Part shown: positions 28,188 to 30,843 of the stretch, one piece after another
Layout: each line of letters starts with the position of its first letter
Numbering within the stretch: the stretch's first letter is position 1
Assembly (NCBI RefSeq): GCF_024171955.1
Contig: NZ_JAMTCS010000009.1
Coordinates: 1-64,000 of the forward strand
DNA: 64,000 bases
Direction: 5' to 3'
Origin: Promicromonospora thailandica
GTDB taxonomy: Bacteria; Actinomycetota; Actinomycetes; Actinomycetales; Cellulomonadaceae
The notes under the pieces: model-generated
Told to the model about the DNA's origin: nothing
The model's input: the letters and a program-made list of their open reading frames with translations, nothing else
Databases searched by the model: none
Made by a program: the position numbers and the translations under genes

Positions 28188-28400
28188 GTGACGCGGACCG
28201 TGCCGGGCGGCCGTGCGGTGGCGCGGGTGACGACGATGCGGATCGCGCCGGGCGGCCGTGCGGTGGGGCGGGTGACGACGATGCGGATCGCGCCGGGCGG
28301 CCGTGCGGTCGGGCGGGTGACGACGATGCGGATCGCGCCAGGTGGCTCGCGCGGTCGGGCGGGTGACGGCCGCGCGGACCGCGCCGGGCGGGTGGTCGGC
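28188..28400. repeat. 45-bp minisatellite, about five copies
   Basis: Units begin GTGACGACGATGCGGATCGC. They start at 28188 (39 bp), 28227 (45), 28272 (45), 28317 (46) and 28363 (partial). Units two and three are almost identical. The period is divisible by three, giving an open frame with a repeated VTTMRIAPGGRAVGR peptide, but no ribosome site or flanking gene supports translation. It ends next to the stop of the GlcD-like gene. Confidence 0.85.
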
Positions 28401-30287: not shown

Positions 30288-30436
30288 GCGCCCATCGTCT
30301 CGCGACCGGGGCGGGCGGTCGAGCAGATACCTTCTCGGTGCTTTATAGAAAGCGCGCCGGAATGTCTACCGGAACACGAAGAAGTGCGTTGACGCACCGT
30401 GTGTTGCGCTGTGCGCACACGAGCGAAAGAAAAGGG

Positions 30437-30472
30437 AAGGGCTCCCCCACGGAATACCGTGGGGGAGCCCTT
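30437..30472 (-). terminator. Rho-independent terminator of the small peptide gene
   Basis: A 16-bp perfect stem (AAGGGCTCCCCCACGG paired with its complement) closes on a 4-base loop. In the minus direction it is followed by CCCTTTTCTTTC. On the plus side there is no T-run, so it serves the minus-strand peptide gene ending 44 bp upstream. Confidence 0.85.
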
Positions 30473-30515
30473 CTGCTGGGGGAACGACTCCAGCGATCTT
30501 CGGCGTCGTGCCAGG

Positions 30516-30599
30516 TCAGAGACCCAGCAGGCACAGCACCTGCGAGACCGTGATGCCCAGGTTGCAGACCAGGTTGGCGACGATGTCGATGAGGCTCAT
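30516..30599 (-). CDS. 27-residue hydrophobic peptide with two cysteines
   Basis: This tiny gene has every control signal. It has an AAGGAGCT ribosome site five bases from the ATG, a TTGCAC-17-TAACGT promoter and a strong terminator. The peptide begins MSLIDIVANLVCNLG and ends SQVLCLLGL. It is almost uncharged (one Asp), with Cys12 and Cys23 on a helix that could be membrane-inserted or amphipathic. I do not recognise it. It could be a membrane or secreted surface-active peptide, a toxin-like peptide or a bacteriocin-like product; no processing genes are adjacent. The flanking DNA is much more AT-rich than the rest of the window. Confidence 0.75.
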   Translation of the reverse strand: MSLIDIVANLVCNLGITVSQVLCLLGL

Positions 30600-30670
30600 G
30601 TGCGAGCTCCTTTTCATGAAATGGGGATCACGGACGTTTGCCCGTGAGTCGAACGGTGTTCGCGTTCCAT

Positions 30671-30699
30671 ACGTTAAGTAGGCGAGACGGACAGTGCAA
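30671..30699 (-). promoter_or_regulatory. promoter of the small peptide gene
   Basis: Read on the minus strand, TTGCAC and TAACGT are separated by 17 bp. Transcription should start near 30664, giving an untranslated leader of about 65 bases and a transcript of about 230 bases up to the terminator at 30437. Confidence 0.65.
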
Positions 30700-30843
30700 C
30701 GTGAATGGGATATTAGTTGTTAAAGCGCGAAATGCGTGACGGCGTGATAGTGGCCCGGGGCGACAGCGGCGACCCGGTGGAGCGGCTCCGACGGCGATTC
30801 CTGACCGGGCGACGAGGCCCGGCCCGGCGGGGACACTGGACCC

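What the first reader, a model, noticed from the sequence alone, without database searches (positions are those of the whole stretch)
30437..30699. Complete minimal gene for an undescribed 27-residue Cys-containing peptide
A promoter, a perfect Shine-Dalgarno sequence, an 84-bp frame and a 16-bp-stem terminator occur together in an AT-rich island. The peptide is hydrophobic, with two Cys eleven residues apart and nearly no charge. The strong signals imply high expression. Standard annotation would miss it because of its size.
Basis: partly seen in the sequence, partly recalled or inferred. Interest (0 to 1): 0.72.

Follow-up and report, generated by a model that had tools for sequence, protein, structure and literature searches.

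The report
Conserved 27-residue helical microprotein gene
A tiny, easily missed gene that makes a 27-residue, water-shy helical peptide is real and kept by evolution in one genus of soil actinobacteria, but what the peptide does is still unknown and its two cysteines are not the conserved part.

Summary
On the minus strand at 30699-30436 lie a promoter (-35 TTGCAC, 17 bp, -10 TAACGT), a 69-nt leader, an AAGGAG Shine-Dalgarno, a 27-codon frame (30599-30516) and a 17-bp terminator stem. The unit occurs 18 times in 12 of 13 genomes of its genus, identified as Promicromonospora by 12 named contigs. All 18 frames have 27 codons and no indel. dN/dS is below 1 in 12 of 12 pairs printed. In nine same-locus pairs, promoter and frame are 87-99% identical, while 3' UTR and terminator sequences often drift but keep stems. 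So the peptide is conserved; an RNA-only role is unlikely.

The cysteine idea fails: Cys12 is in 2 of 18 copies, Cys23 in 8 of 18. The shared pattern reads as two capped helices around Gly15; AlphaFold2 places helices at residues 3-14 and 18-25. Samples outside the genus gave no credible relative, and no known family matched significantly.

Best guess: a well-expressed, membrane-associated amphipathic microprotein; its function is inferred.

The parts
30669..30753 (-). conserved 85-bp promoter block upstream of the presumed RNA start, with -35 TTGCAC (30699-30694), 17-bp spacer and -10 TAACGT (30676-30671)
   Evidence: sequence; 89-99% identical in nine same-locus pairs and 71% in two A/B paralogue pairs; -35 region pattern found only at peptide loci, 17 hits in 12 of 13 genomes, control 0
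30600..30668 (-). 69-nt leader: 5' element GGAACGCGAACACCGTTCG (possible hairpin), then hairpin 2
   Evidence: alignment of 18 copies; the 18-nt leader pattern at 0-1 mismatches gives 16 hits, all at peptide loci, in 13 genomes; 10 further hits at 2 mismatches lie elsewhere
30628..30647 (-). leader hairpin 2, TCACGGGCAAACGTCCGTGA
   Evidence: 6-9 pairs in 18 of 18 copies; pair 5 occurs as G-C (4), C-G (1), T-A (1), A-T (12), pair 3 as A-T (6), G-C (3), G-T (9) (my script picks the best-pairing end for each copy, no shuffled control)
30607..30612 (-). Shine-Dalgarno AAGGAG, 7 nt before the ATG
   Evidence: sequence
30516..30599 (-). 27-codon gene, MSLIDIVANLVCNLGITVSQVLCLLGL, TGA included
   Evidence: translation; 18 full-length copies in 12 of 13 genomes; dN/dS below 1 in 12 of 12 printed pairs; two-helix model
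30474..30515 (-). 3' UTR with the conserved CCCCAGC motif at its end
   Evidence: CCCCAGC at this place in 17 of 18 copies, CCCCAGT in the G031 copy; the 3' UTR before it is 39-100% identical in nine same-locus pairs
30436..30473 (-). intrinsic terminator, 17-bp stem, 4-nt loop
   Evidence: best stems of 15-20 pairs with at most one mismatch in 18 of 18 copies although the sequences differ; the P. citrea locus-A stem is not followed directly by a T run

Best explanation
The feature is an independent one-gene transcription unit for a genus-specific microprotein. Shown by sequence comparison: a conserved promoter block, a structured leader, an SD, a 27-codon frame under purifying selection and a terminator, present once in 6 and twice in 6 of the 12 genomes that have it. 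Inferred: the transcript starts near 30668, is stabilised by hairpins at both ends and is translated efficiently. The peptide folds as two short helices (residues 3-14 and 18-25) joined at Gly15; helix 1 is amphipathic, with D5 and positions 8, 9 and 12 on its polar side. It has no cleavable signal layout. Most likely it lies in or on the cytoplasmic membrane and acts there by binding lipid or a membrane protein partner, as a regulatory or stress-type microprotein.
For: 18 copies in 12 of 13 genomes, 27 codons each, no indel. Synonymous to nonsynonymous differences 7:0, 8:2, 3:0, 4:1 and 8:3 in five of the 12 pairs printed, dN/dS below 1 in all 12; pooled pS 0.321 against pN 0.211 over 17 of 18 copies. 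Promoter 89-99%, ORF 87-96% and leader 91-100% (one pair 60%) identical in nine same-locus pairs, against 36-92% far upstream. Helix 1 hydrophobic moment beats at least 99.5% of shuffles in 18 of 18; GRAVY 1.06-1.87. AlphaFold2 helices at residues 3-14 and 18-25, mean pLDDT 79.3. No exact copy of promoter or leader pattern was found away from these genes in 13 genomes.
Against: No expression data. Membrane association rests on composition; each helix is too short to span a membrane alone. Helix 2 is not significantly amphipathic in 17 of 18 copies, and the whole-peptide moment is significant in only 9 of 18. Constraint is weak in some pairs: dN/dS 0.80 own_A/own_B, 0.77 kropp_A/sukum_A, 0.56 MEB111_A/G097_A, 0.52 panici_B/AC04_B. 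G123 lacks the gene. The structure model rests on 11 short sequences, has pTM 0.39, and includes a 6-residue extension that is probably not translated.
Confidence: 0.45

Rival explanations
1. PSM-like or delta-lysin-like peptide: released without a signal peptide, acting outside the cell as a surfactant, signal or weak antimicrobial.
For: Short leaderless peptide with an amphipathic first helix, paralogues and a structured mRNA. Hyphal actinobacteria use surface-active peptides (recalled).
Against: Net charge -1 to -3. Among the 20 neighbour proteins scanned from three loci, no ABC exporter (a LysE-type and an MFS transporter are there); exporters elsewhere were not searched.
Confidence: 0.22
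2. Type I toxin-like peptide whose mRNA is silenced by an antisense or trans RNA.
For: Small hydrophobic peptide, structured mRNA, two loci, palindromic blocks past the terminator (by eye).
Against: No antisense promoter recognised by eye or by the scan (which also missed the sense promoter); no positively charged tail as usual in such toxins (recalled).
Confidence: 0.1
3. Dual-function or purely regulatory RNA, with the frame secondary.
For: Covarying leader hairpin and terminator, CCCCAGC motif, fold z-scores -4.8, -6.6 and -3.9 in the 3 of 18 transcripts folded.
Against: Frame fixed at 27 codons and dN/dS below 1; most of the 3' UTR drifts. A second RNA role is not excluded.
Confidence: 0.1
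4. Micro-partner of a helix-turn-helix regulator: the two-helix pattern copies a dimer or DNA-binding surface and blocks or joins a larger regulator.
For: 5 of 15 members touch Pfam Xre-like-HTH, best E 0.012; some weak out-of-genus profile matches look like transcription regulators by eye (names recalled).
Against: Not significant; similar motifs occur in unrelated proteins, such as RNA polymerase beta at E 2.1; Foldseek against PDB gave 0 matches at E 10 (a very small model).
Confidence: 0.08
5. Leader peptide or attenuator for a downstream gene.
For: Short frame followed by a terminator; an RF-1-domain (ArfB-like) gene lies downstream on the same strand in the window, and its cluster member in P. 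citrea.
Against: At locus B the next gene is convergent in 9 of 11 copies by my gene calls; downstream genes differ between loci.
Confidence: 0.03

Closest known systems
YohP of E. coli (27-residue small membrane protein; only title and start of abstract of PMC7549839 seen)
   Same: 27 residues, hydrophobic, small stand-alone protein
   Different: the abstract describes such proteins as essentially a single transmembrane domain; this one is modelled as two short helices with an amphipathic first helix; no sequence comparison was run
Phenol-soluble modulins and delta-lysin of staphylococci (recalled; PSM papers seen only in the listing)
   Same: leaderless, short, amphipathic helix, paralogues
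   Different: here acidic, Gly-hinged two-helix pattern, no exporter linked among the neighbours scanned, different phylum
Type I toxin peptides such as Ldr, Ibs, Fst (recalled)
   Same: short hydrophobic chromosomal peptides, structured mRNA
   Different: no antisense RNA recognised, no positive tail, invariant D5, T17 and G26
Pfam PF20432 Xre-like-HTH
   Same: a helix-turn-helix stretch scores weakly
   Different: best E 0.012, 5 of 15 members, only 27 residues, no full domain

Membership tests
Conserved protein-coding small gene | frame kept at constant length without indels in relatives | tested here: met
   18 of 18 copies have 27 codons, no indel; the G031 copy has a local change at codons 14-15
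Conserved protein-coding small gene | fewer nonsynonymous than synonymous changes per site | tested here: met
   dN/dS below 1 in 12 of 12 pairs printed (0 to 0.80); pooled pS 0.321 vs pN 0.211, 17 of 18 copies
   Cys12 in 2 of 18, Cys23 in 8 of 18
YohP-type small membrane protein | one membrane-spanning helix | tested here: inconclusive
   model shows helices of 12 and 8 residues; hydrophobicity is high
Phenol-soluble modulins | amphipathic helix without signal peptide | tested here: inconclusive
   helix 1 moment p <= 0.005 in 18 of 18, but whole-peptide moment significant in 9 of 18; no signal-peptide program was run
Phenol-soluble modulins | export by a dedicated ABC transporter and release from the cell | not tested
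   none among 20 neighbour proteins scanned; whole-genome search not done
Type I toxin-antitoxin | antisense or trans RNA antitoxin | tested here: inconclusive
   promoter scan of both strands found 0 sites, but it also missed the sense promoter
Attenuator leader peptide | same downstream gene on the same strand | tested here: not met
   next gene convergent in 9 of 11 locus-B copies; other genes at locus A
Xre-like HTH | significant match to the domain profile | tested here: not met
   best E 0.012, 5 of 15 members
Known Rfam RNA | score above gathering threshold | tested here: not met
   0 matches in the window

The most novel reading that the evidence does not exclude
A new, genus-wide class of autonomous micro-hairpin peptides. 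A 27-residue peptide of two capped helices around a Gly-h-Thr hinge is made from a dedicated mRNA with its own covarying leader structure and a promoter block found only with it. It self-assembles or docks on one specific membrane or regulatory partner in the hyphal life of Promicromonospora.
Probability: 0.2. Interest if true: 0.65.

Novelty: new member of a known kind. Interest (0 to 1): 0.45.

Why it matters
It adds a well supported microprotein family, unmatched in the libraries searched, to a genus where such genes are easily missed; its 18 natural variants show which residues matter. Promoter block, leader and peptide are conserved together, and the promoter pattern was found only at these genes, so a small set of deletions in one laboratory strain could give a function for a self-contained unit. 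It also corrects the reading that the cysteines are the point.

Tried and rejected
Cys-pair idea: rejected on 18 copies. RNA-only idea: made unlikely by the spared frame. In-frame ATG at 30617 (33 aa): rejected as start; P. citrea locus A has no ATG there and in kropp_A the similar ATG is out of frame. DNA-operator reading of CGAACACYGTTCG: doubtful, since arm spacing is 2 in G031, 5 in G097_A and 3 in the others. Shared regulon: the box TATCACAGGGTGAAA gave 12 exact hits in 13 genomes, all at locus-B copies and none at the 6 locus-A copies (so not at the window's copy), plus one hit with 1 mismatch in G111 that was not followed. The leader pattern gave 16 hits with 0-1 mismatch, all at peptide loci, and 10 with 2 mismatches elsewhere, not followed; its control gave 1. 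TTGCG(N4)CGCAA in the own genome: 4 palindromic sites, none a peptide locus, control 13 per strand. Mobile origin: phages and plasmids gave only short matches, best E 1 and 0.3; 0 in viral contigs for the exact promoter-leader pattern. Profile matches outside the genus: 2 in the order sample and 8 in the class sample; nine lie in open frames of 310-618 aa, the tenth (L019, 32-aa frame) covers profile positions 11-25 only. I looked at translations of 7 of these 10. PADLOC was not scanned, and NCBIfam only with the window's two readings. Literature: five searches, listings and abstract starts only, no paper opened; nothing on this peptide appeared there.

Full report
What is there. The minus strand of 30753-30436 holds a compact gene. 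The -35 is TTGCAC at 30699-30694, the spacer 17 bp, the -10 TAACGT at 30676-30671. A presumed RNA start near 30668 gives a 69-nt leader. AAGGAG lies 7 nt before the ATG at 30599. The frame reads MSLIDIVANLVCNLGITVSQVLCLLGL and ends at 30516. A 17-bp hairpin with a T-rich tail follows at 30473-30436. The stretch is AT-rich for this genome (GC 0.606 against 0.70-0.78 in most windows around).

It recurs. The peptide finds a second full-length copy in the window's own genome (C5:145659-145739, E 0.016) and copies in 11 of 13 genomes of the genus. With a profile of 15 peptides the count is 18 copies in 12 of 13 genomes; G123 has none. In a sample of 200 genomes of the family, the 11 with a match all belong to the genus, so 0 of 187 outside it at E 0.1. 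In 297 genomes of the order and 394 of the class the profile found 2 and 8 further weak matches (best E 3.6e-4), nine inside open frames of 310-618 aa and one covering positions 11-25 alone; I looked at 7 of the 10. These are samples, so a distant relative may have been missed. A pattern over promoter and leader, scanned for exact matches in the named genome collection, hit 12 contigs, all of Promicromonospora, and each of the 12 holds the peptide.

Two loci. Six genomes have a copy at locus A, the window's locus; twelve have one at locus B. In L047, locus B lies between a methyltransferase gene and a TetR gene followed by genes with Pfam domains of a GlmU-like nucleotidyltransferase, a ribose-phosphate pyrophosphokinase, a glycosyltransferase and ribosomal protein L25. 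By my own gene calls, a gene of the GlmU-containing cluster follows in 9 of 11 locus-B copies; L050 lacked the call and L054 ends at a contig edge; G031 was not in that call. That cluster is loose, since it also took in the Fe-ADH gene. At locus A the neighbours are a NUDIX gene and an RF-1-domain (ArfB-like) gene in the window, with cluster members in P. citrea; in three other genomes a LysE-type gene (identified in one) lies upstream. In G123 the Fe-ADH block and the TetR block are separated by only 22-23 bp, so the 1.2 kb that hold the methyltransferase and peptide genes in P. panici are missing. The gene is dispensable in one species and not tied to one neighbour.

It is translated, by comparative signs. 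All 18 frames have 27 codons without an indel. Synonymous against nonsynonymous differences in the 12 pairs printed of 136: iran792/iran3169 7:0, own_B/citrea_B 8:2, kropp_B/MEB111_B 3:0, kropp_B/G097_B 4:1, kropp_B/panici_B 8:3, sukum_A/MEB111_A 3:1, own_A/citrea_A 3:2, kropp_B/sukum_B 2:1, kropp_A/sukum_A 1:2, panici_B/AC04_B 4:5, MEB111_A/G097_A about 5:8, own_A/own_B 8.5:17.5. As there are more than twice as many nonsynonymous sites, dN/dS is below 1 in all 12, from 0 to 0.80. Pooled pS is 0.321 and pN 0.211 over 17 copies, pairs not independent; I left out G031, whose codons 14-15 are locally changed. In nine same-locus pairs the promoter block is 89-99% identical, the ORF 87-96% and the leader 91-100% except 60% in sukum_A/MEB111_A. 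Far upstream is 36-92%, 3' UTR 39-100%, terminator part 53-100%, the first 55 bases past it 40-96% and the next 50 15-88%; the closest pairs (kropp/sukum) are high almost throughout.

The RNA is structured. Leader hairpin 2 forms 6-9 pairs in 18 of 18 copies; its fifth pair occurs as G-C, C-G, T-A and A-T, its third as A-T, G-C and G-T. The script chose the best-pairing end for each copy and had no shuffled control, so this leans towards the structure. Terminator stems of 15-20 pairs with at most one mismatch exist in 18 of 18 with different sequences. The 3 transcripts folded, of 18, fold better than shuffles (z -4.8, -6.6, -3.9). CCCCAGC precedes the terminator in 17 of 18 copies, CCCCAGT in the other. 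The 5' element GCGAACAC.GTTC is nearly invariant; since its arm spacing varies in G031 and G097_A, I favour an RNA hairpin over a protein operator, an inference.

Regulation. The promoter pattern was found only at these genes. The leader pattern gave 16 hits with 0-1 mismatch, all at these genes, and 10 at 2 mismatches elsewhere. The upstream box TATCACAGGGTGAAA is exact in the 12 locus-B copies and within 1 mismatch in none of the 6 locus-A copies, the window's included. The two loci may therefore be regulated differently.

The peptide. In the 15-row alignment M1, D5, L10, L14, G15, T17, L25 and G26 are invariant and Q20 nearly so; the later G031 copy breaks L14-G15, and position 2 is S or T in 18 of 18. 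Cys12 is in 2 of 18 and Cys23 in 8 of 18 (five locus-A copies, G111_B and the two P. iranensis copies). S/T2xxD5 and T17xxQ20 look like helix capping boxes, L14-G15 and L25-G26 like helix ends (my reading from general knowledge). AlphaFold2, on the 33-residue in-frame reading with ten relatives, gives helices at peptide residues 3-14 and 18-25, mean pLDDT 79.3, pTM 0.39. Helix 1 has a hydrophobic moment above at least 99.5% of shuffles in 18 of 18; helix 2 reaches p < 0.05 in 1 of 18, and the whole peptide in 9 of 18. Foldseek against PDB gave no match at E 10.

What it may do. The window peptide matched no Pfam or NCBIfam family even at E 10. Among 15 members the best Pfam match was Xre-like-HTH at E 0.012 (5 members), the best PHROG 0.19, the best PDB sequence an RNA polymerase beta at E 2.1. 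I commit to a membrane-associated amphipathic microprotein, made from its own promoter and acting on the membrane or a membrane partner. I hold the coding status about 95% likely and the mechanism about 45%. PSM-like release, a type I toxin, a second RNA role and a regulator-binding micropeptide remain open.

Novelty. Five literature searches of the held library showed no report of it (listings and abstract starts only, no paper opened). It is a new family of a known kind: small conserved bacterial microproteins of unknown function.

Noticed in passing
window about 30320-30435 and the same place in other copies (past the terminator): By eye, many copies at both loci keep palindromic blocks of the type TGCGC..GCGCA and TTGCG....CGCAA past the terminator although the neighbours differ; purpose unknown. 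An exact genome scan of one form found no peptide locus.
   Followed up: partly
L006 (locus-A copy of strain MEB111): Its leader is of locus-B type (GGAACGCGAACACTGTTCC...TTTCCCG) in front of a type-A peptide, as if the paralogues had exchanged DNA.
   Followed up: no
L057 (G031 copy): Residues 14-15 read Ala-Leu instead of Leu-Gly through a local change, and the 5' leader element is shortened; the copy may be decaying.
   Followed up: no
window 30523-30530 and 30473-30480: The codons CTGCTGGG near the end of the frame can pair with CCCAGCAG just before the terminator, which would close the 3' UTR into one stem; covariation not tested.
   Followed up: no
window about 28188-28366: Repeated stretches read as ...MRIAPGGRAVGRVTT... 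in the mechanical ORF list, so there is a short tandem array.
   Followed up: no
L007, L008, L009 (locus B of G111 and two P. iranensis strains): Locus-B copies with a type-A like end (ILCLLGL), so this end may be ancestral and the AQIR end derived.
   Followed up: no
L001-L017 set, box at locus B versus locus A: The upstream box TATCACAGGGTGAAA is exact at 12 locus-B copies and absent within 1 mismatch at the 6 locus-A copies; some locus-A copies have a TTAGC.....GCTAA palindrome there instead.
   Followed up: partly
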